Shown in pieces: positions 266-20,321 of a stretch of 22,268 nt of DNA. The stretch lies in IMG/VR virus record IMGVR_UViG_3300049783_000990, positions 1-22,268 of that record. One strand, 5' to 3'. The notes below the pieces were generated by a model, which saw only the letters and a program-made list of their open reading frames with translations, made no database searches and was not told the DNA's origin. The stretch is from a virus. The first letter of the stretch is position 1. The number at the start of each line of letters is the position of its first letter. The translations under genes and the position numbers were made by a program.

Positions 266-583
266 TTAAGGTGATCTCTGAGTTACCCCAATTCCTAATG
301 AAATAGCACCCTCCAAGAACGTTGAACGATTACCACTATTAGTGAAAGTAGCACGGTACGTAGAGTTTAACGTGTCAAACTCTACCATACCCTCTGGGTC
401 AACACGTACTGCTACTAACGTAGATGTCTGTTTTAAGTCTTCTAGTATAATTCCATGTACTACCGGACCCCAGAATCTGGGATCTCTGCAATCCCATACA
501 GTCCTAGGCTCACCTTCTTTTCTAATTTTCTTGAGACTGAAAAAGTGTTGTTGTCTTTTAAGTTCGTTAGTTTCAAACATCAT
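266..583 (-). CDS. Hypothetical protein, 105 aa
   Basis: I do not recognise this protein. It starts with Met-Met after AAGGAAATTTA, a good ribosome binding site. It is soluble and mixed in composition: a basic N-terminal third (KRQQHFFSLKKIRKEGEPR), then WDCRDPRFWGP (about residues 30-40), then an alternating hydrophobic stretch suggesting beta strands. It is the last gene of the leftward operon and overlaps the end of the upstream membrane-protein gene by 11 nt, so translation is probably coupled. Position after nadV gives no clear functional hint. The coding call rests on the ribosome binding site, the overlap and the strand. Confidence 0.7.
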   Translation of the reverse strand: MMFETNELKRQQHFFSLKKIRKEGEPRTVWDCRDPRFWGPVVHGIILEDLKQTSTLVAVRVDPEGMVEFDTLNSTYRATFTNSGNRSTFLEGAISLGIGVTQRSP

Positions 584-836
584 TAAATTTCCTTGGTTTA
601 GCTAAAAAGAATGCATATATTCCCAGTGGTAACCAAAAGTGTAAAAAAACAAGCATCGCTAACATTTGTGCTATGGTGTTATTATGTTTTAATATCTTAT
701 CAACTACTGTCATAATATCCGAATATGATGGGTGTTCTGGGTGGTTAGACATGTATATTGCCGCACCAACTACCATAATCGCCGCAATACCACCCAACAA
801 CATATTAATAACATACAGTATCATAATGGCACTCAT
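573..836 (-). CDS. Small integral membrane protein, 87 aa
   Basis: This is a small hydrophobic protein with a strongly non-polar N-terminal segment (about residues 3-29, rich in Ile, Leu, Ala, Gly and Met), a polar middle (NHPEHPSYSD and following, 31-55) and a second hydrophobic block (about 56-78) that ends in the basic AKPRKFNDV. Two membrane helices are the simplest reading. The start overlaps the nadV stop as ATGA, so it is translationally coupled to the nicotinamide phosphoribosyltransferase. It could be a holin-like protein or an accessory to the NAD module; nothing in the sequence decides between these. Function unknown. Confidence 0.7.
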   Translation of the reverse strand: MSAIMILYVINMLLGGIAAIMVVGAAIYMSNHPEHPSYSDIMTVVDKILKHNNTIAQMLAMLVFLHFWLPLGIYAFFLAKPRKFNDV

Positions 837-2524
837 GAGTAATTATCAAAAGCTACTACTGCACGAATCTCAGCTAGTGTGGTTGTTCTGAGCATGACAC
901 CATCTTTGAACACAGTCTCTAAGAGACCACCCTTTTCTTGCTCACGAGTCTGCTCATCCAACATATACAGCTTACCATCATCATCGCAGTGAACACTCAG
1001 CAAACCTTTAGCAGATTTCTTGCTACGGTCAGTCTTTGGGTCTTTGAAGATTGGTACGTCAACACCATTCTTTAGAACGTTAGTTGCTTTCACCGCACTA
1101 CCGTGAGTGTCACGAGTGACCCCTTGGAAAGAGTAAGAACCAACACCAAGCACGATGCTAGGAACAAACCCTTTAGCGATTAGCTTGTCGAGAATCTCAC
1201 GCTGACGACCCAATGTGATAGCATCACCGTAGATTGCACCGATGTGACTGTCAAGCATCTTGTACCCTTCATAAGTAACAGTGCCACCGAACGTATCCCA
1301 CAAACATTCAATCAAACCTTTCTCTTCTGGTGAAAACTCACACGGACCAGACTTTACATTACACCAATCCTCAGCGTAGTAAAATTGTTTATCGTGTCTG
1401 TTCCATTCAATATCAAATTTTACAAAAGAAGGTTCACCTTGGATTAAACACTTACGAGACACCTCATATTCTCCACCATCACCGTGTGGTGTCTGATCTA
1501 GTACTTCGTCATAAAAATACTTCACAGCCTCTCTCAGACTACCAAAATCTAATGGACTTGCAGTACCACAGATCATATCAACAGGGTCACCACTGTCAGG
1601 ACGAACCACAACTTGACCATCACGCGCCATGATCTTATCTTTCATAGCAGGTAGCAGCACAGTGACGAATTCCCAGAAGTCCCATGTGTCAGCAACTACT
1701 GACAGGATACCTTTTTCTGCTGGGTATTCCATCAGGTAGTCAAGGAATGCTTCTTCTCCTTCTTCCATCCACGAGCAAGTAACGCTGTGCTCTGTGGCAT
1801 TAACAGATGCACCAACCAACTCAGTGTCAACATCAGCACCGTAGTATTTCTCTGCAAACAATACAGCAGGAATAGTATCAGTACCTGCAAACCCACTAGT
1901 CAGGTGCGCAAAGCCACTCATCGCAGCAGTGTGACGACTTGTCATTCCGCGCATAGAGAAGTCATGACACATGAACGGTAAGATTTCCATCGGACCACCA
2001 GTCTTGACAAACGCTTCTTTGAATGCTTTGAAGTACGCTGTAGATGTAGTTGATGTGGTTTGCATCATCCAGTTCTCACAACTAAACACAGTCTCAATCA
2101 TATTCGGCAACCACTGGAACCCCGGCAACGTATTGCGGAAGGTGATGGGTGCTACTTGGTAAGGAACAGCAGTACCTTCAGTAAGTGCTTTGATCTCTAG
2201 CGGTAAGTAGCCCAGTTCATGTAAGTCAATTAAGTACTGCACATTAACAGGGTAACCTAACATAGCTGACAGGATACGCTTGTGACGACCGACAGCAACG
2301 TCCAATGGTAGACTGAAGAAGCTTTCTTTCCACTCTTCAATCAGGTAATCCATAATGAAGTACTGCAGACCCACGAAGTTGACTGTATCGTTATCCTCGA
2401 TGTTGCTCCACTTACCACTGCGGCTTGTGAAGTTACTATACACCTCAGTAACATCTGGGTGGTAAGCGTGTACGTGGAACTCTTTATAAACGTCTTTCTG
2501 CATACTTGCTGCGCTAATTGTCAT
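833..2524 (-). CDS. nadV: Nicotinamide phosphoribosyltransferase (Nampt/NadV family)
   Basis: Family reaction: nicotinamide plus PRPP gives NMN, a step of NAD+ salvage in the cytoplasm. At 563 aa it is longer than the usual roughly 490. The conserved core is intact: YSNFTSRS (29-36), HDFSMRG (187-193, the nicotinamide-stacking Phe and phosphate-binding Arg), GTDT (214-217), ATEHSV (243-248, with His246 at the place of the phosphorylated catalytic His of human NAMPT) and VVRPDSGDP (306-314). The start overlaps the stop of the Prs-like gene as TAATG behind GGAGATAG, so the two are coupled. An important alternative is that phage NARP1 uses a Nampt-like enzyme (Namat) that joins nicotinamide to ADP-ribose pyrophosphate and makes NAD+ directly. 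Sequence inspection cannot separate the two activities. Confidence 0.93.
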   Translation of the reverse strand: MTISAASMQKDVYKEFHVHAYHPDVTEVYSNFTSRSGKWSNIEDNDTVNFVGLQYFIMDYLIEEWKESFFSLPLDVAVGRHKRILSAMLGYPVNVQYLIDLHELGYLPLEIKALTEGTAVPYQVAPITFRNTLPGFQWLPNMIETVFSCENWMMQTTSTTSTAYFKAFKEAFVKTGGPMEILPFMCHDFSMRGMTSRHTAAMSGFAHLTSGFAGTDTIPAVLFAEKYYGADVDTELVGASVNATEHSVTCSWMEEGEEAFLDYLMEYPAEKGILSVVADTWDFWEFVTVLLPAMKDKIMARDGQVVVRPDSGDPVDMICGTASPLDFGSLREAVKYFYDEVLDQTPHGDGGEYEVSRKCLIQGEPSFVKFDIEWNRHDKQFYYAEDWCNVKSGPCEFSPEEKGLIECLWDTFGGTVTYEGYKMLDSHIGAIYGDAITLGRQREILDKLIAKGFVPSIVLGVGSYSFQGVTRDTHGSAVKATNVLKNGVDVPIFKDPKTDRSKKSAKGLLSVHCDDDGKLYMLDEQTREQEKGGLLETVFKDGVMLRTTTLAEIRAVVAFDNYS

Positions 2525-3363
2525 TATACTATCTCCATGTTGTGGTTTGTTTCATAAATTGTGTTTGCAGACATTATCTTTGTAATACCTGCCTCATATA
2601 GTGGTGCTAAGCCCTTGGAAAATATTCCGTGGGTTACATATAATTGTACAGTATGTGCACCTGCATTGTAAAGCTCTTTCGTTAACCCTATGAATGTACC
2701 GCCACCGTCACATATATCATCGACGATAACTAGGTCGGCATCCACTACATCATTCAATACCCTAAAGCCAGATAATAACCCTGTTTCTAAATTTCTAGTT
2801 TTAAGACATTGTATAAACTCAGTTCCAAACTTCTCTATTTTCTTTGTGCTGCCTGCATCGGGTGCAACCACAGTTAGTACACCTGATTCTATATCAGATA
2901 GCAGTTGTGTCCCTTTGAGTATATCTCTACAACCTAGGTTAGTAACATTATCGAGTAACGCTGTGGCTACATCACTGTGGTTGTCTAACGTTTCAACTGA
3001 ATGAAACCCAGCGGAGTTTATAAGATTTACCACTACTTTTAAACCAAATGCCTCACCCGAATTACATACCCTATCTTGTCGGCTGTATGGCATGTAATGT
3101 AGTTCTAGTTTAACTGGGTTATTAGATACACGATCTAATGCATCCTTTATTAATAAACAACCTATGATCCCATCACTATCTCGGACCTTAACTTCCAACA
3201 CGTGTAATTCTGGAATCGGAGTCGGTAAATAAATGTTTGCAAGTGCCGCTACCATATCAAATTCCCTGTAGCCAAGGTTCTCAGGTATGCGTATGTTTAG
3301 TTCTCCACCGGGAAATTTAGATACCTCTAATAAAGTTCCGTTTAAAATAAATTCACTTTTCAT
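2524..3363 (-). CDS. prs: Ribose-phosphate pyrophosphokinase-like protein (Prs or NARP1 Adps type)
   Basis: The Prs family transfers pyrophosphate from ATP to ribose 5-phosphate, making PRPP, the co-substrate of NadV. At 279 aa it is shorter than housekeeping Prs (about 315). Visible motifs are FPGGELNIRI (17-26), YMPYSRQDR (90-98, ATP flexible loop), DNHS (127-130, where DLHS is usual), VVAPDAGSTKK (165-175) and the PRPP-binding signature VIVDDICDGGGTF (212-224). It has an AAGGATTAACA ribosome binding site, sits 2 nt after the glycosyltransferase stop and overlaps nadV by 1 nt. In NARP1 phages a Prs-like enzyme instead pyrophosphorylates ADP-ribose; the pairing here is compatible with either role. 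Family assignment is secure, substrate is not. Confidence 0.9.
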   Translation of the reverse strand: MKSEFILNGTLLEVSKFPGGELNIRIPENLGYREFDMVAALANIYLPTPIPELHVLEVKVRDSDGIIGCLLIKDALDRVSNNPVKLELHYMPYSRQDRVCNSGEAFGLKVVVNLINSAGFHSVETLDNHSDVATALLDNVTNLGCRDILKGTQLLSDIESGVLTVVAPDAGSTKKIEKFGTEFIQCLKTRNLETGLLSGFRVLNDVVDADLVIVDDICDGGGTFIGLTKELYNAGAHTVQLYVTHGIFSKGLAPLYEAGITKIMSANTIYETNHNMEIV

Positions 3364-3365
3364 TG

Positions 3366-3974
3366 TTAATCCTTAAAATTAAAGTTTCGCTTATATGCCA
3401 TTTTACTATCACCCTTAGATGCTCTATGGCATATAACGGTATCATTATTTGGGTCTGGTGCGTTTGCATTGAGCATTTTGAAATATTGCACTGGAAGTTC
3501 ATCTGTCCTTAAATTAGTAGATGATTCCTTGTGTTGCTTCCAAATAAGGTCTAATGATAATTCATCTGACCACTTCTCGTCAACTATTTTATCATTCCAT
3601 TCTTTTAAGAAGTCCATGGCACTTGGTGTGTAATTAAAATACATAGTACCTACATGCCATATTCTATCAGATGTTGTGGCTTTTTTCTTTGCTGCAAAAT
3701 CAAATGGGTAGTCTGCTTTGAATATCTCTGGCACTTTTAATATACTACCATCCACATCTATCCACAGTACCGGCCTTTTTAATTCAAGTAATGTTTCATA
3801 TATGAACTTCGGCTTCAAACGGGTGTTCTTTAGCCAATCTCGGGTGTCTGCCTTTTCAACGATATGGTGGTGTAACCCTAACCGAGTACAATCTCTTTTC
3901 ATAGCCGTCGCATAACTTGGGTATTCCCAATTTTGTGTATAAAAGCTTATTATTGTTGGGTAATCATCTCCCAT
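3366..3974 (-). CDS. GT-A-fold glycosyltransferase-like protein (nucleotide-diphospho-sugar transferase type)
   Basis: This 202-aa protein starts with a beta-strand pattern (YPTIISFYT, 5-13). A stretch reading KPKFIYETLLELKRPVLWID leads into the D-x-D motif WIDVDGSIL (71-79), where Asp73 and Asp75 would bind a divalent metal and the sugar nucleotide. AAKKKA and WHVGTMYFN (106-114) resemble the acceptor side of the nucleotide-diphospho-sugar transferase family. It is shorter than many GT-A enzymes but appears complete. It overlaps the upstream pyruvyl-transferase-like gene by 11 nt and lies 2 nt before prs. The acceptor may be DNA, a virion protein or a cell-surface glycan; the sequence does not say. 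Confidence 0.7.
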   Translation of the reverse strand: MGDDYPTIISFYTQNWEYPSYATAMKRDCTRLGLHHHIVEKADTRDWLKNTRLKPKFIYETLLELKRPVLWIDVDGSILKVPEIFKADYPFDFAAKKKATTSDRIWHVGTMYFNYTPSAMDFLKEWNDKIVDEKWSDELSLDLIWKQHKESSTNLRTDELPVQYFKMLNANAPDPNNDTVICHRASKGDSKMAYKRNFNFKD

Positions 3975-4737: not shown

Positions 4738-5679
4738 TTAATCGCCTCGGTGGGTGAGGACGTGGGTGTTCCGGTTTATTTTTGGGTCATCAACACCACC
4801 GTGGTCGCCTCGAATCAACTTATCTAATGTCGCTATTGCATCTTCGAAATCATTACCAAATAACCTGACAGAAATTATCAATTCCTTTAAGTGTGCAACT
4901 GAATAACCTCCCGTCCTAGTGACCCACTCATCAATATTATCAACTGAATCACCTGATCTGCTGAGGACTTCTTCAATATACGCTTTGCGTGCTTCTGCAC
5001 CCGGCATACCAACATATTTTACCAAATCGAATCGACTTGGCCTGTTCGTTAATCGTGTGTCTAGGTTTTCAATATAGTTGGTTGTGGCAATAAACACAAT
5101 ATTATGTACTTGATATTCCCCGTCCAATAGATGTGTCAGCTTCTCATTATTTTCACTACCACTCTCAAGTATAATATCAATATCTTCTAAGACAACAATG
5201 ATGGGTCTTGTTGGCTCTATAGTACGTACTACCCCAAGTGCATTTGCGAGAACCGAAGGTGAGTCCGAATATATCACAATGCCGCCTTTAGCGATTAAAC
5301 TTTTGGCCGCAAGTTGTAATGTTGTTGTTTTGCCGCTACCGGGAGGTCCATACATAAGGATGCCCCGCTTCCAGATATACCCAAACTGTTTAAATCTATC
5401 TTCCATAGTCCAAAACTTATCAACATATTGAACCAATTCCTCTGCCACTGTATCATGAAGATTGATCATTGTGTCAAATGCGGTGTTATGATTTAAGAAG
5501 TACAGCCCACGCATAATGTCAACACCAATGGTATATTCTCCGGGTGGTAAACTTTCTCTAACATTCTGGACATCTGATGGGAAATAACTTTTATTATCAC
5601 CACTCACCCATACTGCTGAGTTTTTGTACATCCCGCCCTTAACACCTGTATCTAGGTCATCATCATCGTAATACGTCAT
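4738..5679 (-). CDS. AAA+ ATPase (BCS1-like)
   Basis: This 313-aa protein has an N-terminal region of about 100 aa without a recognisable fold, then a single AAA+ module: Walker A GPPGSGKTT (111-119), Walker B IIVVLEDID (160-168), sensor-1 IATTN (197-201) and RPSRFD (213-218, the arginine region). The order and the GYSVAHLKELI stretch near residue 260 resemble BCS1/FtsH-type AAA ATPases, which remodel or unfold proteins. The N-terminus is acidic (YYDDDDLD). It is the first gene after a strong promoter and has an AAGGA ribosome binding site. No protease or zinc-binding domain is fused. Its partner is unknown; linkage to sugar-transfer and NAD genes is unusual. Confidence 0.85.
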   Translation of the reverse strand: MTYYDDDDLDTGVKGGMYKNSAVWVSGDNKSYFPSDVQNVRESLPPGEYTIGVDIMRGLYFLNHNTAFDTMINLHDTVAEELVQYVDKFWTMEDRFKQFGYIWKRGILMYGPPGSGKTTTLQLAAKSLIAKGGIVIYSDSPSVLANALGVVRTIEPTRPIIVVLEDIDIILESGSENNEKLTHLLDGEYQVHNIVFIATTNYIENLDTRLTNRPSRFDLVKYVGMPGAEARKAYIEEVLSRSGDSVDNIDEWVTRTGGYSVAHLKELIISVRLFGNDFEDAIATLDKLIRGDHGGVDDPKINRNTHVLTHRGD

Positions 5680-5742: not shown

Positions 5743-6483
5743 ATGAAATTTATTAATGAGATAGCAAACAATTGGGAAGTAACATCTATTGTTGCTGAAA
5801 TGGATTCGGTACTTAAGCGGTACTCCAGAATAGTACGACTAACTGCACTACATGAAGGGCAACTAGATACAATCAGTGATGATGTTATTAGTGCTGTAAC
5901 CGAGATACAGAACAGGATAAATGTTATCAGTAAGGCAAGAGACTCGGTTGATGGTATGGCACCAGATGACCAATATAAGTTGGCACGGAATAAAAAGTTT
6001 ATCATGCTTGCGCTCAAACGTGTTAATGGTAGAATGGATCAATTTCAAGAGTTGACCAAAAGTGAGTTGGGTGTTACAGGTGATGAAACACTATCACGCC
6101 CTACTATGGTTGAACCTGATGCAGTTGAACCTGATGCAGTTGAACCTGATGCAGTTGAACCTGACAGTGATGCTGGTGCAGTTGAACCTGATGCAGTTGA
6201 ACCTGACAGTGATGCTGACAGTGATGTTGAACCAGTTGATATCGATGTGTATGGTAGACAGGCACCTTACCTATTAAATAAAGCTGCTGCTGGAACTTTA
6301 GAGGTGTACTCTGATACGTTTGATAAGTACCTAGATACTTTTGAAAACTTAGTCAGTGCTAAACTCTTAACACCATATGGTAAAATAACACCAGTTGGTA
6401 AAGCTTCACTTGCTGCTAGAAGTCCAGCTAAGAAAGGATCAATGTCATCATCTGCGCTCAGTGACTTGCTAAATATGGACTAA
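5743..6483 (+). CDS. Late protein with VEPDA repeats and winged-helix-like C-terminus
   Basis: A 246-aa protein of unknown function with an AGGAG ribosome binding site and a late promoter. Residues 1-120 are mostly helical. MKFINEIANN at the start contains I-N-E, resembling a gp21-cleaved head-targeting peptide. Residues 123-166 are a Val-Glu-Pro-Asp-Ala repeat, acidic and probably extended. The C-terminal part (about 170-230) ends in LVSAKLLTPYGKITPVGKAS, which looks like the recognition helix and wing of a winged-helix domain. The next gene has a similar module, so the two may be paralogous. Late expression suggests a virion or assembly protein rather than an early regulator. No homologous family recognised. 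Confidence 0.8.
   Translation: MKFINEIANNWEVTSIVAEMDSVLKRYSRIVRLTALHEGQLDTISDDVISAVTEIQNRINVISKARDSVDGMAPDDQYKLARNKKFIMLALKRVNGRMDQFQELTKSELGVTGDETLSRPTMVEPDAVEPDAVEPDAVEPDSDAGAVEPDAVEPDSDADSDVEPVDIDVYGRQAPYLLNKAAAGTLEVYSDTFDKYLDTFENLVSAKLLTPYGKITPVGKASLAARSPAKKGSMSSSALSDLLNMD
6109..6240 (+). repeat. 15-bp tandem coding repeat (VEPDA)
   Basis: The unit GTTGAACCTGATGCA repeats exactly at 6109, 6124 and 6139. Two longer units (6154-6180 and 6196-6225) carry a GACAGTGATGCT insertion, separated by another 15-bp unit at 6181. A degenerate unit closes the array at 6226-6240. The repeats are identical at the DNA level, not only in protein, which implies recent slippage or unequal recombination and likely copy-number variation between relatives. 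Confidence 0.9.
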
Positions 6484-9244: not shown

Positions 9245-10969
9245 TTATTTAGGTGCTGGCTTCTCTTCTGGTGGCGCAACTGCCTCTTCATCTTCACCGG
9301 TTGGGGTGTTACCGTCACCTTCTGGTCCAGCAGGATCATCTGGGTTATCAGCGTCCATATCGTCACCGCCGTCCATATCACCACCACCTTCTTCGCCACC
9401 TGATCCACCAAATGGTGATCCACCGCCCATCCCACCTTCAAACCCACCAGCCTCTGCATCTGCTGGGCGATACAACAATGGTAAGTCTCTATCGTCACCT
9501 GTGCCCTGTAACCCCTTTTCTTTACGTAGCATGTCTTCGTTCATGCGTATCTCATCTTTGGTTAGCCCTGCATATCGTTCAAGTATGAACCTCTTAGACA
9601 TATACTCAATACCTTCAACACTACCAAGGTTAGCAAGCATATCTGCGTCCATGGCCTGTTGTCTGGACTTGAAGTAATCAGATGGTTCTGGTAATGTTAT
9701 TCTGTAAATGGTTGGATCTATCTTTATCTCAGCCTCATACAACCAACGCTTAAATTCAGCATCAAGAACTTCTTCTAGGTATCGCTGTAGTCTTTGTATA
9801 TAGAGTGAGAATTTGATTTCCTGTAGATATGCTATGCCCACACGACCCTCATTACCAATAGCTTGGCCATCCTCAGTAGATGACCCAATATATGATGATG
9901 GTATGCGTAGTGCACGCCACATCTTTCTATAGAAATAATCCAGTTCTGTTAGTTCACCAAGTCCCTGACCACCCGGCAGTGTTTCTACCTTAGAACCCGA
10001 ACCATTTGGTCTAGTTGCAAAATAGAAATCTTCGTTTATACTTTGTGGGTTATATACCGACTCAACCTGTGATTTACCACCGTATCTACTAGGCACTTTC
10101 TTTTGCTTAATCTGATTGCGAAATTTTTCCAATACACCCGGAACTAGGTTGTCTGGGCGATTACCAACATCAATATAAAATACTCGTTTCTCTGGTGCCC
10201 TAGAAATTCTATAAATTAAAATAGAATCTTCTAATAGTTCTTTTTGTTTGAATACCTTATATGCTGGGCGTAATACTGAGATGCCAAACGGTGCCTCTTC
10301 CGACATATCATCTGATATGCAGAACCGGACAATCTTATCCTTATCCAATGGTCGTACATTCTTGTCGCCCATCTCACCAGTCGCCTGTGATTGGAAAGCA
10401 CCAGTGCTACCACCATTATTTGGATCATTATAGTCACCATTAACATACCAACCACGTATGTCAGTTATGTCATCCTCTGAAACAATAGCACCCACAACAT
10501 TCTTGGGGTGTATAAATTTAAAAGGTTTGTTTTTCTTATCATTACGTTCAAAGAAACAATCACCATACTTAATCATATTCCTAGCTACACTGAATAGACG
10601 CCCACCCTGCCAATTATGCACCTTAGTCCAAGTCTTGAGTGCTGCCCGTAATGTTGAAAAATGGTGTGATGGGATGTTTTCTTCTGATCCAGCCTCTATC
10701 ATCACATCCATAGGCAGTCTGGTCTTGGGGTTATTACCTGTCATTTCTTCGGCCATAATATCCAATGCACGGGAAACATCGATATCATTATCCATAATAT
10801 CATATTCTCGATAACGGGTTAGTCGGGTCGTAGATCCTTGGATGATTCGCTGATACCAACCATAGTTGCCATATAGCCCATTTGTGCCAGTAGAGTTCTG
10901 ATTATCAGATACTGACATATTTGGTGACTGGGGTGAAACTACTTTAAAATATGTGGTTAAGCTGCTCAC
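9245..10969 (-). CDS. 20: Portal vertex protein (T4 gp20-like)
   Basis: The portal forms the dodecameric ring at the unique head vertex, starts prohead assembly and is the DNA entry channel. At 574 aa it is slightly longer than T4 gp20 (524). Family features are YREYDIMDNDIDVSRALDI (53-71), the RAPEKRVFYIDVGN motif (257-270) and PGGQGLGELTELDYF near residue 330. The last 65 residues are a low-complexity Gly/Asp then Pro/Glu tail, not typical of T4. The start is GTG (10969), 7 nt after AGGA; an ATG two bases upstream is followed at once by TGA and cannot serve. A late promoter precedes it. Confidence 0.93.
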   Translation of the reverse strand: MSSLTTYFKVVSPQSPNMSVSDNQNSTGTNGLYGNYGWYQRIIQGSTTRLTRYREYDIMDNDIDVSRALDIMAEEMTGNNPKTRLPMDVMIEAGSEENIPSHHFSTLRAALKTWTKVHNWQGGRLFSVARNMIKYGDCFFERNDKKNKPFKFIHPKNVVGAIVSEDDITDIRGWYVNGDYNDPNNGGSTGAFQSQATGEMGDKNVRPLDKDKIVRFCISDDMSEEAPFGISVLRPAYKVFKQKELLEDSILIYRISRAPEKRVFYIDVGNRPDNLVPGVLEKFRNQIKQKKVPSRYGGKSQVESVYNPQSINEDFYFATRPNGSGSKVETLPGGQGLGELTELDYFYRKMWRALRIPSSYIGSSTEDGQAIGNEGRVGIAYLQEIKFSLYIQRLQRYLEEVLDAEFKRWLYEAEIKIDPTIYRITLPEPSDYFKSRQQAMDADMLANLGSVEGIEYMSKRFILERYAGLTKDEIRMNEDMLRKEKGLQGTGDDRDLPLLYRPADAEAGGFEGGMGGGSPFGGSGGEEGGGDMDGGDDMDADNPDDPAGPEGDGNTPTGEDEEAVAPPEEKPAPK

Positions 10970-10997
10970 ATTAAAATCCTATTCCTTGTATATGGTA

Positions 10998-11005
10998 TAT
11001 TTATA
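10998..11005 (-). promoter_or_regulatory. T4-type late promoter for the portal gene
   Basis: TATAAATA on the minus strand, exact consensus, 29 nt before the GTG start of the portal gene, in the 57-nt gap after the hub-like gene. Confidence 0.72.
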
Positions 11006-11026
11006 ATTCATAACTACATCTGTCAC

Positions 11027-12895
11027 TTATATTAAATCATCTGTTCTTTGGAGAGATAGATATTGATAAAAAGATCTACCCTTCCCCCCTCCAAACACAT
11101 TAACAACCCTAGTCATGTGGTAAAATTCATCAAAGTAAAACCTATTGGGAACATCATCGTTCTCAATCCCCTCTACATTAATTTGCGCTTCAAAAATTGT
11201 CAGCTTTACATACATTGGTTCAGTTTCTGGTTTAGGGTAGTAGTTAACTTCACCATCAACATCACTTACCACTTCTGCAGGATTCCTGTTCATATCTGAC
11301 ATGAGGTTGGGGTTTCCATGTATTATAAGGTCACATCTAGTCGTTTGGTCATATGAATCTGCATCTAATAATGTATAAATGTTTCCAGCCTGTTGTGCAC
11401 TTTCTAAACCATCTATCACGTGTGGGGCTGTCAAACTTCGCACACCACTATATAGTGTCTCATAAAACCCCAACTCCGGTGACCTTTCACTTGTTGATTG
11501 CTCCCTATCTGCAAACACGACACCTGCACCAACCGGACTCTCTTTTTGCTGCTCCAATACCACATCAGCAGACTGGTATCTTATGTTTGACCTCATTGAA
11601 ACAATATCAGTGTGCCTGCGCTCTGGGCCATCATTTATATAAAAATGTAAAGGATATATTCCAGTCCCCGGACCAGTGTTTGTTTTTTTGTCGGAAGGGT
11701 TGTTTGGTATTAAATATTTTCGAATTTTTATATTAATAACATATTCAGTTTTTGTCCTTATGGGTGTTATCGTAGTTTTGAAGGTTGTTTTATATTTAAC
11801 ACTTGCATCTTGGCCGATTGCCTTGGATAGGTACATGATCTTAGTTACAGCCTCGCATATAGTCGATCCTGCACTTATCGAGTAAACATTTATCCCCTTT
11901 TTATCTTGCACTACATCTGGTTGTTCGAATGGCATGTTTCGGTTATCTACTAAGTAATTTCTATATTCCTTATCCAAATCGACCTTAAATGTAAGTGGTA
12001 GGCTTTTATCTGGTCCTTTTTTTTGTTCCGGGGCTATTAGTATTTTATCCACAGTGTCACCACTTCGTATTTCACGAAGCCACAGTTGCAATTGCCCCTT
12101 ATGTGCGTACCTTTGTTGATTTAAATCTGCCTCAAACCCCTCAAATACATCCTGTAAGGTTACCATTGGTTTCGATAAATCTAACCGTTTCTTTCTTTCA
12201 GATGTATTAAATGTGTTATCGTCTGATCTAGTGGGAATCCCGCCGCCGCTTCCCTGAAACCCAGATGACGGTAACGTATTGTGGATGTTACCGTCTTTAT
12301 GTGTTATTGTGAACTGGTTCAATTCAGATAATGCTGGCAATAACCCAAGACTGTTTGATATACCAATTGCTTTCAATATGTGGTTTTTTGGTGTAGCGGA
12401 TTTTTTGGTTGGTAATGTTTCTATACTGTCTATATTAAAATAAAATGGCCGGGGGTAAATGTGGTCCTCATCACCATCCACATCCGAGTTAACCGAAAAT
12501 ATTGTCTTTAATACAAATGTTACATGTGATAATGATGTTCCCTTACCGAGGGTATCTAGAAGATTTACACGAAGAAAATCAAGAAACGAATACGCTACTC
12601 GCCTATCGGAAATAACTATTCTACCCACACTTGTTGATGTTATTATTCCTACTGTCGGGGCATAATTAAAATCCCACATAGCCTCCGATATACTAAACCG
12701 TTTATCATTTGTCTCATTCACAACCACCATGGTTTGGCCTACAAACGCATCACTTTTAAGCGGTTCCCCAACTATCGCTTTACCCGGATCAAAGCTTTCA
12801 AGTTTCACGGCATCCTCTGCGTATTCAAATGCTAAAAGTATGTGTCTGTGAGTTGATGTACCACCAACATCTAATGGGTTATTTGGTATAGACAT
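11027..12895 (-). CDS. Baseplate hub-like structural protein, 622 aa
   Basis: Third gene of a late unit that begins with a tube-cap-like gene and a gp53-like wedge gene. The N-terminal half has beta-rich segments (HRHILLAFEYAEDAV, RVNLLDTLGKGTSLSHVTFV). TICEAVTKIMYLSKAIGQDA (near residue 345) and TEYVINIKIRKYLIPN (near 385) resemble the domain pattern of gp27-type hub proteins. TTRCDLIIHGNPNLM (near 545) matches the diagnostic 'I-x-G-x-P' step seen in such hubs. It is much longer than T4 gp27 (391 aa), so gp27 identity is not certain. No lysozyme domain is evident. The ribosome binding site is weak; translation is probably coupled to the gp53-like gene ending at 12897. Confidence 0.55.
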   Translation of the reverse strand: MSIPNNPLDVGGTSTHRHILLAFEYAEDAVKLESFDPGKAIVGEPLKSDAFVGQTMVVVNETNDKRFSISEAMWDFNYAPTVGIITSTSVGRIVISDRRVAYSFLDFLRVNLLDTLGKGTSLSHVTFVLKTIFSVNSDVDGDEDHIYPRPFYFNIDSIETLPTKKSATPKNHILKAIGISNSLGLLPALSELNQFTITHKDGNIHNTLPSSGFQGSGGGIPTRSDDNTFNTSERKKRLDLSKPMVTLQDVFEGFEADLNQQRYAHKGQLQLWLREIRSGDTVDKILIAPEQKKGPDKSLPLTFKVDLDKEYRNYLVDNRNMPFEQPDVVQDKKGINVYSISAGSTICEAVTKIMYLSKAIGQDASVKYKTTFKTTITPIRTKTEYVINIKIRKYLIPNNPSDKKTNTGPGTGIYPLHFYINDGPERRHTDIVSMRSNIRYQSADVVLEQQKESPVGAGVVFADREQSTSERSPELGFYETLYSGVRSLTAPHVIDGLESAQQAGNIYTLLDADSYDQTTRCDLIIHGNPNLMSDMNRNPAEVVSDVDGEVNYYPKPETEPMYVKLTIFEAQINVEGIENDDVPNRFYFDEFYHMTRVVNVFGGGKGRSFYQYLSLQRTDDLI

Positions 12896-12896
12896 A

Positions 12897-13256
12897 TTAT
12901 TTACGTGGCCTGTTAGATGCGGACTTTCCTAATATTTCATAAAAAACCCTACTCTTTGACGGTAAAAATATTATCTTCCCCTCGGCTAATTCTTCATTTA
13001 TATCAACAATACTATTATACTGCAACACCAACCAACCAAGGTCATGTTTGCCATAATAGTCGAATGCAATCAAATCAGGCTTACCTGCGTATACCGTAGA
13101 TATGTTGTAGGTGACATCACTTGTATTATCTTTATCGTATGTTTTTCTCTCCCACCAACGTATAAACTTTTCACCAACGGAACTCTCCCCACCCTGAACA
13201 TACCGTGAGTTTTTCTTATACATTGATGATTTATCTGTGTAAAGTTTAAATGTCAT
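12897..13256 (-). CDS. 53: Baseplate wedge protein (T4 gp53-like)
   Basis: A 119-aa protein with the gp53 pattern: an N-terminal stretch with FIRWWERKTY (about 32-41), then PDLIAFDYYGKHDLGWLVLQ (56-75) and YNSIVDINEELAEGKIIFLP (76-95), a LysM-like fold ending in SKSRVFYEIL. T4 gp53 (196 aa) joins wedges around the central hub; this version is shorter, as in many distant T4 relatives. It lies 3 nt after the tube-cap-like gene and 1 nt before the hub-like gene, with an AGGATGG ribosome binding site. Confidence 0.8.
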   Translation of the reverse strand: MTFKLYTDKSSMYKKNSRYVQGGESSVGEKFIRWWERKTYDKDNTSDVTYNISTVYAGKPDLIAFDYYGKHDLGWLVLQYNSIVDINEELAEGKIIFLPSKSRVFYEILGKSASNRPRK

Positions 13257-13259
13257 AAT

Positions 13260-14006
13260 TTACCATCCTCTCAAATTTCCAACCTTAAATGCTGCTAGGT
13301 CAAACGAATTACCGGAGGTAGCATTTTGTGATATGGCGTTACCATCGGCGTCTTTACTTAGTGTGTATTTTAGGTCGTGAGACTCAATCAATGATATATC
13401 GATACTTTGTATTATTGGCACACTATATGCTCCACAATTTATATAGTCCACGTCGTCCGGGTAAGCTATACTAAAACTTGATAGTTGTACGGGTATCTCA
13501 TAAAATTGTGTACCGTATCCACTAAGTTTGAGTAATGGTGGTGATCCAAATGTCTCATGTTGTGACCTTATCGGTAACAACCAAGATCTTAATAAATTAA
13601 CGGCCAGATAGTTGGCCGTGGCCTCAGTTACACTCCTAGATACGAATTTTGCATTAATAGTAAACCTTCTATTATTAGTTACAGTGTATATTAAAATACC
13701 ACTTTCTCCCGGCAACCCAGAGTCTACATATTCTGCTTCCCTAGATTCAGAAATGGCTGGTGTGTGCTTAAATATAACAACATCATTTTTGTAAGATGCC
13801 TTATCCAGTGCCTCCTGTCCAGCTTGACTTCTTCTTCGTGTGAGATTGTTTTGAGCAGCAGCTAACCTATCAGGATATGCCAACCTATGAACATCATACG
13901 GTGTGTCTTTTATTTTTGCCAAATCCCGTTCAGCCCCAGCTACGTCAAAAATACGAGTTGCACGCCTTAACTGAACCTGTGTTGGTTCTATAGAGTTTGT
14001 GGCCAT
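13260..14006 (-). CDS. Baseplate tail-tube cap/initiator-like protein (gp48/gp54 type)
   Basis: A 248-aa protein. The C-terminal part has the order NLLRSWLLP...FGSPPLLKLSGYG...YEIPVQLSSFSIAYPDDVDY, which I associate with gp48-type tube-cap proteins of T4-like phages ('P-x-V-x-x-S-x-x-x-x-x-PDDVDY'). These proteins sit on the hub and start tail-tube polymerisation. It is shorter than T4 gp48 (364 aa) and gp54 (320 aa), so I cannot say which it replaces. It has a GAGGAATAG ribosome binding site, a late promoter 29 nt upstream and is the first gene of the baseplate unit. Confidence 0.65.
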   Translation of the reverse strand: MATNSIEPTQVQLRRATRIFDVAGAERDLAKIKDTPYDVHRLAYPDRLAAAQNNLTRRRSQAGQEALDKASYKNDVVIFKHTPAISESREAEYVDSGLPGESGILIYTVTNNRRFTINAKFVSRSVTEATANYLAVNLLRSWLLPIRSQHETFGSPPLLKLSGYGTQFYEIPVQLSSFSIAYPDDVDYINCGAYSVPIIQSIDISLIESHDLKYTLSKDADGNAISQNATSGNSFDLAAFKVGNLRGW

Positions 14007-14034
14007 TATTACTATTCCTCATTGAATACCATAA

Positions 14035-14042
14035 TATTTATA
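14035..14042 (-). promoter_or_regulatory. T4-type late promoter for the baseplate unit
   Basis: TATAAATA on the minus strand, exact consensus, 29 nt before the tube-cap-like start. No other exact box lies before 11005, so it probably drives all three baseplate genes. Confidence 0.72.
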
Positions 14043-14075
14043 ATTCGGAACAATAGTTATAAATTGTGAATAAGG

Positions 14076-14105
14076 TTGAACTTTCTTATACTTATATGGT
14101 ATAAT
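14076..14105 (+). promoter_or_regulatory. Sigma70-type promoter for the late sigma factor
   Basis: TTGAAC (14076-14081) and TATAAT (14100-14105) with an 18-nt spacer precede gp55 by about 60 nt. An early or middle promoter fits a factor that must be made before late transcription. A one-mismatch late box, TATAAATG (14130-14137), also lies upstream and could allow self-maintenance. Confidence 0.65.
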
Positions 14106-14113
14106 ATGGTAGT

Positions 14114-14128
14114 CCTTATAACATAAGG
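14114..14128 (+). repeat. Inverted repeat in the gp55 leader
   Basis: CCTTAT and ATAAGG are perfect 6-bp arms with a 3-nt spacer, starting 9 nt after the -10 box, at or just past the predicted transcript start. It could be an operator or a small hairpin at the 5' end of the mRNA. Confidence 0.45.
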
Positions 14129-14163
14129 GTATAAATGGAATAATAACAATAAAAAGGTAGTAA

Positions 14164-14727
14164 ATGACAACAGCTAAAGACGAAACCAAAAAGGTTGAAG
14201 AAATCCAAGAAGTAGTAGTTAAGCCAAAGAAGAAGAAAAATTATCTGAATAATAAGGATATGATGGCTGAACTTAGGAAATGTCATGAACAGGATAAGAT
14301 GACAGATGAATTTGCCAAGATGATTATGCTACTAGCAGAACGTTACGGTGGTCGATACGAATACTCTGACTATAACTCACATATCGAAGATATGAAAGCT
14401 GTCGCAGTTATCAATGTCGTCCGTGCTTGGCGTGGTTTCAATCTAGAACTATATAATAACCCATTTGCATACTTCACGCAAGCAATTAAACATACTTTTT
14501 GGCAATATGTTTCACAAGAAAAGAAACATAGGCTTAATCGAGACTCTATCCTAATAAGCTTAGGTGAATTACCATCTGACGCATACATGGACGATTACCA
14601 AAAAGAAATGGAACTTCTCAATGATGAAATGGCTGCACCTGATACATCTAACCTAGATGGTGTTGGGAGTCCTGATTTCAATCTAGACGACTTTGTTTAC
14701 GTTGAACCTGTAGCTGATGTAAAATAA
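14164..14727 (+). CDS. 55: Late-transcription sigma factor (T4 gp55-like)
   Basis: T4 gp55 binds host RNA polymerase core and recognises TATAAATA late promoters together with the sliding clamp and gp33. At 187 aa it is almost the size of T4 gp55 (185). The N-terminus is charged with a Lys run (about 20-25). DEFAKMIMLLAERYG (48-62), VAVINVVRAWRGFN (80-93) and NNPFAYFTQAIKHTFWQYV (98-116) followed by QEKKHR match sigma region 2 in order. The end, DFNLDDFVYVE, is acidic-hydrophobic and might be the clamp-binding tail (inference). Four exact late boxes in this window give independent support. Confidence 0.9.
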   Translation: MTTAKDETKKVEEIQEVVVKPKKKKNYLNNKDMMAELRKCHEQDKMTDEFAKMIMLLAERYGGRYEYSDYNSHIEDMKAVAVINVVRAWRGFNLELYNNPFAYFTQAIKHTFWQYVSQEKKHRLNRDSILISLGELPSDAYMDDYQKEMELLNDEMAAPDTSNLDGVGSPDFNLDDFVYVEPVADVK

Positions 14728-15306
14728 CTACACACTAATCCCAATGGTAGCATGTTTTAGTTTTTCTTGCCACCATTGGGGTTCTGTGCGAGTAGTCCAT
14801 ACTGCAAACCGACGCTTATCTTCCCAATAAAAATTTCGGTATGATTTTAATGAGTCACCAGAAACAACACACTCTGGATATTTTTTCATTGCTGGTGTTG
14901 GTTGGGTAAATGTTTTTGTGGTTGATATATTCTTTGGTGGTGTTGCAAGAATACATGAAAGCTTTACATATGATGCGTGATCTTTTCCGTATCGGTGCTT
15001 ATACTCGTTTGCTAGGTTAGACCACATGTTATATAACCAATTGTAATTAGCCTCAGATTCCCTAACCCATATGTTTGATGGGTGATTTACGTGACATGTA
15101 AGATACAAAGTATCATCTAATGTAGGATGGCTATACTTTTTAATGTTTCTATCGTTCTTAGATTTTGTTACATACATATTACCATCAACAACACGGTGGG
15201 CAGTTGAAAGTAACTGGGCATATTCTGTGCACATCTTCACTACATGTTTATCACAGTGTTGAATTGCACATTCATTTGCGTCTTGGTGTAAGTAGAATAT
15301 GTTCAT
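14728..15306 (-). CDS. Conserved phage protein of unknown function, 192 aa
   Basis: I recognise the pattern as a family found in many tailed phages but know no established function. It starts MNIFYLHQDANECA, then CDKHVVKM (18-25), AQLLSTAHRV (30-39), HPSNIWVRES (75-84), NYNWLYNMW (87-95), EYKHRYGK (101-108) and YRNFYWEDKRRFAVWTTR. The conserved His, Cys, Lys, Tyr and Trp residues suggest an enzyme. It is sometimes found near nucleotide-metabolism genes, but no activity can be assigned. The start codon overlaps the stop of the macrodomain-like gene as TAATG, so both are made from one mRNA. Confidence 0.8.
   Translation of the reverse strand: MNIFYLHQDANECAIQHCDKHVVKMCTEYAQLLSTAHRVVDGNMYVTKSKNDRNIKKYSHPTLDDTLYLTCHVNHPSNIWVRESEANYNWLYNMWSNLANEYKHRYGKDHASYVKLSCILATPPKNISTTKTFTQPTPAMKKYPECVVSGDSLKSYRNFYWEDKRRFAVWTTRTEPQWWQEKLKHATIGISV
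14740..14780. repeat. Inverted repeat after gp55
   Basis: CCCAATGGT (14740-14748) and ACCATTGGG (14772-14780) are perfect 9-bp arms, 23 nt apart, starting 13 nt after the gp55 stop and inside the 3' end of the convergent 192-aa gene. The long loop and lack of a downstream T run make a classic terminator unlikely; it may stabilise the 3' end of the gp55 mRNA. Confidence 0.4.
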
Positions 15307-16295
15307 TAGTTTAATAACTCAGTCATTTGATTATACCGGGAATTATCATAACATACAACTATTGGGTTTATACCATAAGACTTGGCAAGGCTTACTGTGG
15401 TCATAACTACTGATATTATATCATCATCTTTATTCCCGAATGCGCCACCACCAACAAAAGTTAAAAACAAATCTCGGTTCCCCGTAGTCTCAGCATTTAA
15501 TACGGCAGCATATACTGTTGCTTCATATGATTTTTTCAGAACTGCGTTTGCAAACAACCTAACACCATGTGACCCGCGTGCATTTTTCATATATGCTACT
15601 GGTATTGCTGAACAGTACACTTGTGTAACTCTATGTTTTGGTTGGCTATACACAACCTCAGTATCATACTGAATACCAACTTGCAAATTATCGAATATAA
15701 TTGCATCTTTTAATATGCGTTGATTGCTATTCATATACGTAACCCCCCAGTCGGTAAGCATACAATACCCGTTAGACATATTCCATAAGTTATCATGGTG
15801 CAATCTTTCACCAACATCTTTAAGACAATCAATTTGACTACTGTCACCCTGCACATTATAGTTTCGGTAGACAGTTCCTGCCGCGCATTCAATTGCACAC
15901 ACTGGGCCTTGAGTATGGTCGTTTGCATAATTAGTGATGCCATCTGATGGTTTATTATGGGGAGACATCATTTCTAATAGATTAAACTGTGATGCTGCTT
16001 GGAATGTGGCCCCACAGTTTTGCGTGTTGCGGTGCAATTCACTAACATCTGCCTTTATAACAGCACATGTCCCTTTGAAGGGGTATCTCTTTAATGTGTT
16101 GGCTGCATTACGCAGTTCTAATACTGAAGGAGTTTCTAATTTACCAACAGTGAAAGTTCTACCGTTCACATGGGAATGCATTGTGTTGGTAGTATCATCA
16201 AACGTGAGATTGGTTTGTACATTTTCTTGCCGTTCAAGAGCATCCCGCCCCTCTGCAAAGCCAAATAACTCTAAAAACCAATCATTATTATACAT
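15306..16295 (-). CDS. Macrodomain-like (PARG-type) protein, tentative
   Basis: A 329-aa protein. The start is ATG at 16295, 5 nt after AAGGAG; an in-frame GTG at 16301 lies inside that ribosome binding site. Conserved-looking blocks are CGATFQAASQFNLLEM, then TQGPVCAIECAAGTVYRNY, QIDCL, TQVYCSAIPVAY and, near the C-terminus, LFLTFVGGGAFGNKDDDIIS. The last two, with the helix between them, resemble the spp-x-P and LGxxGCGxFGN steps of microbial poly(ADP-ribose) glycohydrolase macrodomains, which bind or hydrolyse ADP-ribose. I recall similar uncharacterised proteins in other microbes. The fold is an inference. It is co-transcribed with the 192-aa protein. Confidence 0.45.
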   Translation of the reverse strand: MYNNDWFLELFGFAEGRDALERQENVQTNLTFDDTTNTMHSHVNGRTFTVGKLETPSVLELRNAANTLKRYPFKGTCAVIKADVSELHRNTQNCGATFQAASQFNLLEMMSPHNKPSDGITNYANDHTQGPVCAIECAAGTVYRNYNVQGDSSQIDCLKDVGERLHHDNLWNMSNGYCMLTDWGVTYMNSNQRILKDAIIFDNLQVGIQYDTEVVYSQPKHRVTQVYCSAIPVAYMKNARGSHGVRLFANAVLKKSYEATVYAAVLNAETTGNRDLFLTFVGGGAFGNKDDDIISVVMTTVSLAKSYGINPIVVCYDNSRYNQMTELLN

Positions 16296-16316
16296 GCCCA
16301 CTCCTTAGTTTCCATC

Positions 16317-16345
16317 AGGATACACCACTAGTTTAACAATGTCAA
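16317..16345 (-). promoter_or_regulatory. Sigma70-type promoter for the macrodomain-like gene
   Basis: On the minus strand TTGACA (16345-16340), 17-nt spacer and TATCCT (16322-16317). The predicted transcript start falls only about 15 nt before the ATG at 16295, giving a very short leader that still includes AAGGAG. Confidence 0.55.
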
Positions 16346-16375
16346 GCAAGTATTACATAACGTGCTTCTTTTTTA

Positions 16376-16400
16376 ACACCAATTGTGATATAATTGGTGT
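16376..16400 (+). promoter_or_regulatory. Extended -10 promoter of gp47/gp46 inside a perfect palindrome
   Basis: TATAAT (16389-16394) is preceded by TGA, giving an extended -10 (TGnTATAAT); no good -35 hexamer is seen. The box lies in a perfect inverted repeat, ACACCAATT (16376-16384) and AATTGGTGT (16392-16400), 9-bp arms with a 7-nt spacer. A dimeric repressor or activator site overlapping the promoter is the simplest explanation. Confidence 0.6.
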
Positions 16401-16419
16401 ATATTTAATAGGATATTAT

Positions 16420-17457
16420 ATGAAAAATAAAGCAGCAAGTTTTACAGATATTCATTGGGGTAGAAAGAACAACAGTGAACTACACAACCAAGATTGCATT
16501 AGATTCATGGAATGGTTTTGCAACAACGTTAAAGCAGACCCAACAATAGATCACATCGTGTTCATGGGTGATTGGTTTGAAAACCGTTCAGCTATCAATG
16601 GCCTTACATTAGACTATGCTTTAATTGGGGCTAAGATGCTTGACGCACTTGGACTACCAGTATATTTCATTGTTGGTAATCATGACCTATATTACAGAAC
16701 AACCCGCGAAGTATACTCGACTAACATGTTTGACTCATTAGGTTTTAATATGATCAACACACCCACCATCATTGAAGACTTGGGGCCAAAGGGTGCATTA
16801 GTTTGTCCATTCCTATTTGAGAGTGAGTATTCATTACTTGCACAATATTTAAAGACACCAGTGTGGTTTGGTCACTTTGAATTCAAAGGTTTCGTTATAA
16901 CTGGTGATACTAAAAAAATGGAACATGGGCCAGACCCCGAGAACTTTAAAAACCCTAGACGTATATTCTCTGGACATTTCCACAAAAGGCAAACCACAGG
17001 TAATATTACATACATCGGTAATACGTTCCCTGTAGACTTCAGTGATGCAAACGATACTAAGCGTGGAATGATGGTATACGATTATACATTAGATGATGTA
17101 ACGTTTAAGGATTGGGGTGAATGTCCAACCTACATAAGAACAGAGTTATCCGCGTTGATAGCTGATGCTAAATCTATTTTACGTGAGGATGCCGTTGTTA
17201 GTTGTGTTGTTGATACGGACATTAACTATGAGCAGAGTCTAAAGTTAAAGGCACAACTTACGAAGAAATATAAACTAAGAGAGATAACCCTACAAGAAAG
17301 TGCAGACAAGATGCGTGCTTTAGTCGATACTGGGATGGACAGGGAAGAATTGGCGAAGCTGGATACTACAACCAAACAAGTAGTGGCTATGCTTGGTAAT
17401 ATTAAAGCAGAGTCTATAGACAATGACAAACTAATAGCAATATTTGAGGAACTATAA
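16420..17457 (+). CDS. 47: Recombination endonuclease subunit, SbcD/Mre11-like (gp47)
   Basis: Nuclease subunit of the gp46/gp47 complex, which resects DNA ends for recombination-dependent replication. The start is ATG at 16420, with AGGATATT upstream and directly after the promoter; a longer in-frame start at 16339 would include the promoter and is rejected. The 345-aa product is close to T4 gp47 (339). Calcineurin-like phosphoesterase motifs are in order: FTDIHWG (8-14, with Asp10 and His12), MGDWFENR (49-56), GNHDLYY (86-92) and FSGHFHK in the middle (metal-binding His pair). The stop and the gp46 start overlap as TAATG, so the subunits are coupled. Confidence 0.93.
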   Translation: MKNKAASFTDIHWGRKNNSELHNQDCIRFMEWFCNNVKADPTIDHIVFMGDWFENRSAINGLTLDYALIGAKMLDALGLPVYFIVGNHDLYYRTTREVYSTNMFDSLGFNMINTPTIIEDLGPKGALVCPFLFESEYSLLAQYLKTPVWFGHFEFKGFVITGDTKKMEHGPDPENFKNPRRIFSGHFHKRQTTGNITYIGNTFPVDFSDANDTKRGMMVYDYTLDDVTFKDWGECPTYIRTELSALIADAKSILREDAVVSCVVDTDINYEQSLKLKAQLTKKYKLREITLQESADKMRALVDTGMDREELAKLDTTTKQVVAMLGNIKAESIDNDKLIAIFEEL

Positions 17458-19640: not shown

Positions 19641-19648
19641 TCCCCCAC
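19630..19648. terminator. Hairpin in the shared gene ends
   Basis: GTGGGGG (19630-19636) and CCCCCAC (19642-19648) are perfect 7-bp arms with a 5-nt loop. The loop contains TTAA, which supplies the stop codon of gp46 on one strand and of the protease gene on the other. No strong T run follows in either direction, so it may stall or protect rather than terminate efficiently. Confidence 0.6.
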
Positions 19649-20179: not shown

Positions 20180-20207
20180 GTGGTCTCCAATTTATTGTAA
20201 GTATACT

Positions 20208-20237
20208 ATTATATATTGCACTGCACCATTTGGTCAA
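20208..20237 (-). promoter_or_regulatory. Sigma70-type promoter of the protease gene
   Basis: On the minus strand TTGACC (20237-20232), 18-nt spacer and TATAAT (20213-20208), about 28 nt before the ATG at 20179. It predicts early or middle expression of the protease. Confidence 0.65.
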
Positions 20238-20286
20238 CACTTTTTTAGAATACTTTTTTTCACCTCAAACATTAGTTATTTTCACT

Positions 20287-20297: not shown

Positions 20298-20321
20298 CAT
20301 ATAATGTGAGGGTTTGGTTTT

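What the first reader, a model, noticed from the sequence alone, without database searches (positions are those of the whole stretch)
833..3363. Prs-like/Nampt-like pair: NARP1 or NARP2 NAD+ reconstitution?
Seen: a 279-aa Prs-family protein overlapping a 563-aa Nampt-family protein, both with intact catalytic motifs. Known: phages use pairs annotated as Prs and Nampt either to make NAD+ from ADP-ribose plus nicotinamide (NARP1, enzymes Adps and Namat) or to make NMN (NARP2 style), countering NAD+-depleting defences. Inference: this operon is such a counter-defence. The longer-than-usual Nampt-like protein, the short Prs and the DNHS in place of DLHS leave open which substrate is used, and no adenylyltransferase is visible in the window, which would be needed for the NMN route unless the host supplies it.
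Basis: partly seen in the sequence, partly recalled or inferred. Interest (0 to 1): 0.7.

Follow-up and report, generated by a model that had tools for sequence, protein, structure and literature searches.

The report
Phage NAD+ rebuilding gene pair (NARP1)
A large bacterial virus carries the two-enzyme NARP1 kit that turns the debris of destroyed NAD+ (ADP-ribose and nicotinamide) straight back into NAD+, a known way to undo bacterial suicide defences; it is a new member of a known kind, with one unusual residue in the pocket that sets substrate choice.

Summary
In detail: a 279-aa Prs-family gene (2524-3363, -) and a 563-aa Nampt-family gene (833-2524, -) overlap by one base and are intact. 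The open question (NARP1 or NARP2) can be answered from sequence: NARP1. The Nampt-like protein lies inside the Namat clade with SPbetaL1 and Felixounavirus (Bas63-type) enzymes, split 100/100 from human, Xanthomonas, KVP40-type and NadM-linked Nampts. It keeps nearly all NAD+-contact residues and the Namat clamp (RSGKW like Bas63 RSDKW; GSYSFQ-x-VTRD); its model matches Namat (9w5x) best. The Prs-like protein has the Adps signature (DDICDGGGTF, PDAGSTKK), not that of Prs (DDMIDTGGT). The 'long' protein and 'DNHS' are ordinary variation. No adenylyltransferase was found in the window or in about 38 kb more of the same virus. One oddity: clamp position 7, otherwise almost always a large side chain, is glycine (G468), with tryptophan (W39) in the opposing loop. 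The phage is a XacN1-like jumbo myovirus; XacN1 itself carries Nampt+NadM instead. Side finding: all 31 bacterial relatives fetched are Adps-Namat pairs near NrtR, the ADP-ribose-sensing repressor. Verdict: new member of a known kind.

The parts
2524..3363 (-). Adps-like gene (ADP-ribose pyrophosphate synthetase), 279 aa
   Evidence: TIGR01251 1.2e-36, phrog_619 2.8e-71; Adps signature; model pLDDT 91.3, best PDB matches PRPP synthetases
2692..2721 (-). 5'-phosphate-binding loop DDICDGGGTF (residues 215-224), Adps type; Prs has DDMIDTGGT
   Evidence: alignment of 73 Adps/Prs proteins
2974..2985 (-). D-x-HS motif as DNHS (residues 127-130)
   Evidence: second residue variable in Adps; N also in L264 and L291
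833..2524 (-). Namat-like gene (nicotinamide ADP-ribose transferase), 563 aa
   Evidence: phrog_448 3.3e-172; tree; best PDB match 9w5x Namat by sequence and by fold
2408..2425 (-). selectivity clamp loop (SCL) SRSGKW, residues 34-39; W39 at the stacking position as in Bas63 SDKW
   Evidence: rule from PMC12774641
1109..1141 (-). selectivity clamp helix (SCH) GSYSFQGVTRD, residues 462-472; Y464 at position 3, G468 (GGG) at position 7
1787..1789 (-). H246, the histidine of the ATEHS motif, aligned with the EHS histidine of human and Xanthomonas Nampt
   Evidence: alignment; PMC12774641 says the catalytic histidine is conserved
1325..1582 (-). 86-aa insert (residues 315-400), mostly low confidence in the model; length-variable in the family
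573..836 (-). 87-aa hydrophobic ORF overlapping the end of the Namat gene by 4 bases, probably same operon; function unknown
   Evidence: no Pfam match
3366..3974 (-). Nucleotide-diphospho-sugar transferase-like gene just upstream (operon neighbour, probably not part of NARP1)
   Evidence: PF03407 1.2e-5; kept next to a PS_pyruv_trans-like gene in L161-L164; no NAPRTase gene in the records of L161 and L163
3964..4731 (-). Polysaccharide pyruvyl transferase-like neighbour
   Evidence: PF04230 3.6e-16

Best explanation
The pair is a NARP1 module. The Prs-family enzyme (Adps) moves pyrophosphate from ATP onto ADP-ribose to give ADPR-PP. The Nampt-family enzyme (Namat) then joins ADPR-PP to nicotinamide and gives NAD+ directly. 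ADP-ribose and nicotinamide are what host NADase effectors (TIR, SIR2, SEFIR) release, so the phage rebuilds the NAD+ pool during infection and blunts abortive defence without an NMN adenylyltransferase. Shown here: both genes, their coupling, family placement, conservation of catalytic and NAD+-contact residues, clamp and Adps signatures. Inferred: the reactions, the preference for ADPR-PP over PRPP, and the counter-defence role.
For: Tree: window inside the Namat clade; 100/100 split from human, Xcc, VH7D, BL02, Aer25, phiCbK and Tunturi Nampts. 46.8% identity to SPbetaL1 Namat, 40.7% to Bas63, 58.8% to ICP1, 34.4% to VH7D Nampt; of the 20 NAD+-contact positions that PMC12774641 lists for SPbetaL1 (R40 included), only F392 (to Y), Y396 (to G) and R40 (to K, followed by W) differ. 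Clamp loop and helix of Namat type and length. Best PDB sequence and fold matches are Namat 9w5x/9w5w (403.7 bits; Foldseek 6.8e-54, TMt 0.94) ahead of human NAMPT (196 bits; 3.2e-41). Adps motifs in the partner. Adps near Namat in 73 of 80 further viral loci and in 31 of 31 bacterial loci; absent beside the five Nampt-clade phage genes read. No PF01467 in an overlapping 51-kb contig of the same virus.
Against: Clamp position 7 is glycine, seen in no other Namat examined here. The Adps is divergent (about 30-45% to all others), and its tree leaves it on an unresolved branch; that tree even places E. coli Prs among Adps on a 3.85-long branch, so it cannot prove membership. A bona fide NMN-linked enzyme (HdNadV) falls inside the Namat clade, so clade alone does not fix the substrate. 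No activity data.
Confidence: 0.86

Rival explanations
1. NARP2-type route: Prs makes PRPP, Nampt makes NMN, and an NMN adenylyltransferase of the phage or the host completes NAD+.
For: Namat retains NMN synthesis from PRPP in vitro at about half the human Nampt rate (PMC12774641). The nearest described phage, XacN1, has a true Nampt (GMGGKLLQADIDRD) and a NadM-Nudix, so this lineage does use that route. Loss of the second clamp aromatic could lower ADPR-PP preference.
Against: XacN1 has no Prs-like gene at all; the window has a different, Adps-signature partner and a Namat-type clamp. No adenylyltransferase was seen in the window, and none in about 38 kb more of this virus.
Confidence: 0.06
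2. Same NARP1 chemistry, but the selected benefit is general recycling of ADP-ribose and nicotinamide for phage replication, not counter-defence.
For: Chromosomal Adps-Namat pairs near NrtR in marine gammaproteobacteria show that the gene pair also has non-phage uses.
Against: The pair is variable cargo among phage relatives (no NAPRTase gene in 8 related records, most of them fragments), as expected for counter-defence; experiments on SPbetaL1 NARP1 show rescue from NAD+ depletion (PMC12774641).
Confidence: 0.15
3. A decaying or functionally shifted copy: the glycine at clamp position 7 signals loss of ADPR-PP selectivity.
For: G468 is unique among the Namats examined; the Namat end branch is 0.67 against 0.29 for its sister.
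Against: No frame break; 0 of 88 near-invariant Namat columns and 1 of 29 Adps columns altered. The GGG codon differs from TAC/TAT at all three bases, so not a simple read error. In SPbetaL1, single clamp mutations cost only about 1.3-1.7-fold. W39 may compensate (inference).
Confidence: 0.07

Closest known systems
NARP1 of Bacillus phage SPbetaL1 (Adps + Namat; Namat structures 9w5w, 9w5x)
   Same: gene order, tight coupling, Namat fold, NAD+-contact residues, clamp architecture
   Different: 46.8% (Namat) and 31.0% (Adps) identity; 86-aa against 15-aa insert; F392 to Y, Y396 to G, R40 replaced by K+W; SPbetaL1 Adps has the DDLSSFGGTF loop variant
NARP1 of Escherichia phage JohannRWettstein (Bas63)
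   Same: long Namat (593 aa), clamp loop RS-x-KW, DDICDGG-x-TF loop in the Adps of this phage group, adjacent genes
   Different: 40.7% and 38.1% identity; Bas63 has tyrosine at clamp position 7
Chromosomal Adps-Namat pairs near NrtR in Alteromonadales, Vibrionales and Oceanospirillales (L108-L138)
   Same: nearest cellular Namats (58-61% by tblastn), same pair order
   Different: near an ADP-ribose-responsive repressor; tyrosine or histidine at clamp position 7; Adps only about 35-45% identical
NARP2-type Nampt phages (Schizotequatrovirus VH7D; Nampt with NadM-Nudix in phiCbK and XacN1)
   Same: Nampt superfamily fold and catalytic residues
   Different: no adjacent Adps; Nampt-type GGGLLQ-like loop, no Namat clamp; separate clade (VH7D, phiCbK in the tree; XacN1 by motif)
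HdNadV of Haemophilus ducreyi plasmid pNAD1 (9ke8, 9keo)
   Same: falls in the Namat clade by sequence
   Different: no Adps on its 5.6-kb plasmid; clamp residues replaced (GAQTYQRNTRD)

Membership tests
NARP1 | Adjacent adps and namat genes | tested here: met
   one-base overlap TAATG
NARP1 | Namat-type enzyme: falls with characterised Namat, apart from Nampt | tested here: met
   100/100 split; 9w5x best by sequence and fold
NARP1 | Clamp helix GSX-Phi-X-Phi-X-Phi-TRD with aromatics at positions 3 and 7 (PMC12774641) | tested here: inconclusive
   GSYSFQGVTRD: length, GS, TRD and position 3 (Y464) met; position 7 is G468, not met. Accepted paired Namats also show M, L, C, H or A there, so the aromatic is a majority trait, not a strict requirement
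NARP1 | Clamp loop residue 3 R/K/Y, with a stacking residue at 4 if K or Y | tested here: met
   S-G-K-W, as Bas63-type S-D-K-W
NARP1 | Adps-type rather than Prs-type donor loop in the partner | tested here: met
   DDICDGGGTF against DDMIDTGGT; PDAGSTKK against PDIGGVVR; signature derived here by comparison
NARP1 | Partner clusters with characterised Adps in a tree | tested here: inconclusive
   deep branches unresolved, Prs on a 3.85-long branch
NARP1 | Makes NAD+ from ADPR, ATP and nicotinamide; rescues NADase defence | not testable with these tools
   needs enzymes and phage assays
NARP2 (Nampt with NMN adenylyltransferase) | Nampt of the PRPP-using clade (GGGLLQ-like loop) | tested here: not met
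NARP2 (Nampt with NMN adenylyltransferase) | NadM/NadR-type adenylyltransferase in the genome | tested here: inconclusive
   none among the window ORFs scanned with Pfam, none by PF01467 in the overlapping 51-kb contig; the rest of the genome is unseen
Housekeeping Prs / Nampt | DLHA and DDM-x-DT-x-GT motifs; grouping with cellular PRPP-using Nampt | tested here: not met

The most novel reading that the evidence does not exclude
The window enzyme is a re-tuned Namat. Clamp position 7 has lost its large side chain (G468) while the opposing loop has a tryptophan (W39). The pocket may have been rebuilt to hold adenine by a tryptophan-tyrosine sandwich, or loosened so that the enzyme uses both ADPR-PP and PRPP and the phage can draw on both routes.
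Probability: 0.15. Interest if true: 0.45.

Novelty: new member of a known kind. Interest (0 to 1): 0.32.

Why it matters
It places NARP1 in a jumbo T4-like phage lineage whose nearest described member, XacN1, carries the Nampt+NadM route instead, so related phages carry two different answers to NAD+ depletion. The natural G468/W39 clamp variant is a ready-made test of how Namat chooses ADPR-PP over PRPP. The side observation that all 31 bacterial relatives fetched sit near NrtR, whose ligand is ADP-ribose, suggests that NrtR-linked 'prs-nadV' genes of marine gammaproteobacteria are NARP1 rather than PRPP synthetase plus Nampt, and would make the open question of what bacterial NARP1 is for directly testable.

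Tried and rejected
DNA similarity of the window to known phages: only a 196-base patch. Exact DNA probe for a contig extending the left end: none. The Adps tree could not resolve deep branches and is not used as proof. Macro-domain search in the overlapping contig and relatives: only XacN1. The founding NARP1 paper (Nature 2024) and the NrtR paper of 2008 are not in the held library; their content is cited from other papers or from general knowledge. Rejected: that length or DNHS argue for a different substrate. In the Namat alignment and model the window reference started at the second codon, so Met1 is missing and residue numbers there are one lower; this has no bearing on the result.

Full report
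What was checked. The window is a 22,268-base viral contig. The Prs-like ORF (2524-3363, minus strand, 279 aa) and the Nampt-like ORF (833-2524, minus, 563 aa) are present as described. They share one base in TAATG, and each start has a Shine-Dalgarno-like stretch. Profile matches are far beyond chance: NAPRTase 4.9e-36, phrog_448 3.3e-172, ribP_PPkin 1.2e-36, phrog_619 2.8e-71.

Namat or Nampt? A maximum-likelihood tree of 62 proteins splits 100/100 into two parts. One holds human and Xanthomonas Nampt, the Nampt of Schizotequatrovirus VH7D, two other T4-like Nampts, and the phage Nampts beside an NMN adenylyltransferase or cytidyltransferase (phiCbK, Tunturi_5). The other holds SPbetaL1 Namat, the Felixounavirus representative (tootiki, standing for Bas63), ICP1, many viral contigs, bacterial chromosomal genes and the window. 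A 2025 paper treats the Schizotequatrovirus homologue as NARP2 (PMC12028318). Within the second part the window pairs with L009 (100/96). By PDB sequence search the best match is SPbetaL1 Namat (9w5x, 403.7 bits), far ahead of human NAMPT (196 bits). The AlphaFold model (pLDDT 88) also matches Namat best (6.8e-54, TMt 0.94) before human NAMPT (3.2e-41).

Clade alone does not decide the substrate. HdNadV of Haemophilus ducreyi (9ke8, solved with NMN) falls inside the Namat clade, but its 5.6-kb plasmid has no Adps gene and it has lost the clamp residues (GAQTYQRNTRD). The clamp therefore matters more. PMC12774641 defines it: a loop with R, or K/Y followed by a stacking residue, and a helix GSX-Phi-X-Phi-X-Phi-TRD with aromatics at positions 3 and 7. 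The window has S-G-K-W, matching the Bas63-type S-D-K-W, and GSYSFQGVTRD with Y464 at position 3. Nampts have GGGLLQ-like loops instead. Of the 20 NAD+-contact positions that the paper lists for SPbetaL1, the window alters only F392 (to Y), Y396 (to G) and R40 (to K, followed by W).

The one departure. Position 7 is glycine, codon GGG, three base changes from a tyrosine codon, so a simple read error is unlikely. In the aligned relatives it is Y, F, M or H; in a second set of 80 viral loci it is Y, F, H, M, L, C or, once, A. SPbetaL1 single clamp mutants lose only about 1.3-1.7-fold activity, and Y396K with F392G about 4.3-fold, so activity is probably kept. W39 is unique in its column among the 43 aligned proteins, though the Bas63 type also has W there. 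A compensating role is inference.

Adps or Prs? The NAR 2026 paper states that the structure of Adps is unresolved, so a signature was derived by aligning Adps-like proteins, including SPbetaL1 and the Bas63 type, with E. coli and another housekeeping Prs. Housekeeping: DLHA, PDIGGVVR/PDVGGVVR, DKRRPRAN/DKRRPKAN, DDMIDTGGT/DDMVDTAGT. Adps-like: D-x-HS, PDxGaxKK/R, K-x-R-x-x-x-TG, DDICDG-x-x-TF, with DDL-x-S-x-GGTF in the Gram-positive phages. The window has DNHS, PDAGSTKK, KTRNLETG and DDICDGGGTF. In Prs the D-T-x-G-T loop binds the 5'-phosphate of ribose 5-phosphate (general knowledge); replacing T by G plausibly makes room for the ADP part (inference). The Adps tree is unresolved at depth and is not used as proof. 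The Adps is less like its kin (34% to L009) than its partner (68%), so the two genes evolve at different rates or have different histories.

Pairing. An Adps-like gene was found in 73 of 80 further viral loci held with 3-kb flanks and in all 31 bacterial loci. The five Nampt-clade phage genes read have no Adps beside them.

Genome context. The portal protein is nearest to jumbo myoviruses: Xanthomonas phage XacN1 (384,670 bp, 55.1%) and two Stenotrophomonas phages (51%). XacN1 has a Nampt of the PRPP-using kind (GMGGKLLQADIDRD) and a NadM-Nudix, and no Prs-family gene. The window's pair follows a glycosyltransferase-like gene; L161 keeps that gene and its pyruvyl-transferase-like neighbour but has other small ORFs after it, and none of eight related records holds a NAPRTase gene. 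These records are mostly fragments. The pair thus looks like variable cargo. One of the eight, IMGVR_UViG_3300047667_000920, is 100% identical to window 9295-20969 and runs about 38 kb further to the right; it has no PF01467 adenylyltransferase. It ends before the pair, so its lack of a NAPRTase gene is expected. The left side and most of the genome remain unseen.

Side finding. The nearest cellular relatives (58-61%) are chromosomal genes of Pseudoalteromonas, Shewanella, Colwellia, Motilimonas and others. All 31 loci pair an Adps-like gene with a Namat and have an NrtR homologue nearby, mostly directly upstream of adps (Pfam NUDIX + NrtR_WHD confirmed for L110 and L130). NrtR is a known ADP-ribose-responsive repressor (cited in PMC9503650). 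PMC12774641 reports functional bacterial NARP1 and calls its role open. No held paper mentions both NARP1 and NrtR, and in Shewanella oneidensis overexpressing nadV alone barely changed NAD(H) (PMC6128845). This fits nadV being a Namat that needs Adps, but the S. oneidensis gene itself was not analysed here.

Verdict. NARP1, new member of a known kind, with an unusual clamp residue. Chemistry and counter-defence are inferred by homology and remain to be assayed.

Noticed in passing
L108-L138 (bacterial loci); NrtR e.g. L130:2217-2969, L110:2255-2977: All 31 fetched bacterial Namat homologues are Adps-Namat pairs with an NrtR (ADP-ribose-sensing repressor) homologue within the fetched flanks. 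Suggests that NrtR-linked 'prs-nadV' genes in these marine gammaproteobacteria are chromosomal NARP1.
   Followed up: partly
L317:3828-5315 (H. ducreyi pNAD1; PDB 9ke8, 9keo): HdNadV falls within the Namat clade but has no Adps partner and has lost the clamp aromatics: possibly a natural reversion from ADPR-PP to PRPP use.
   Followed up: partly
L156 (IMGVR_UViG_3300047667_000920), window 9295-20969: A second contig of the same virus, 100% identical over 11,675 bases, extends the genome about 38 kb beyond the window's right end.
   Followed up: partly
L151, L155 (XacN1): XacN1 carries Nampt plus NadM-Nudix and no Prs or Adps, while the related window phage carries NARP1: two NAD+ routes in one jumbo phage lineage.
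   Followed up: partly
window 2524-3363 against 833-2524: The Adps is only about 34% identical to that of L009 although the Namat is 68-70% identical to those of L009 and L083: strong rate or history difference between the two partners.
   Followed up: no
window 4738-5679: AAA ATPase gene with homologues in related phages (L157, L167) beside the cargo region; most of its PHROG matches are of unknown function.
   Followed up: no
window 5743-6483: A 246-aa protein between the prohead protease and the cargo genes carries a run of repeated VEPDA peptides.
   Followed up: no
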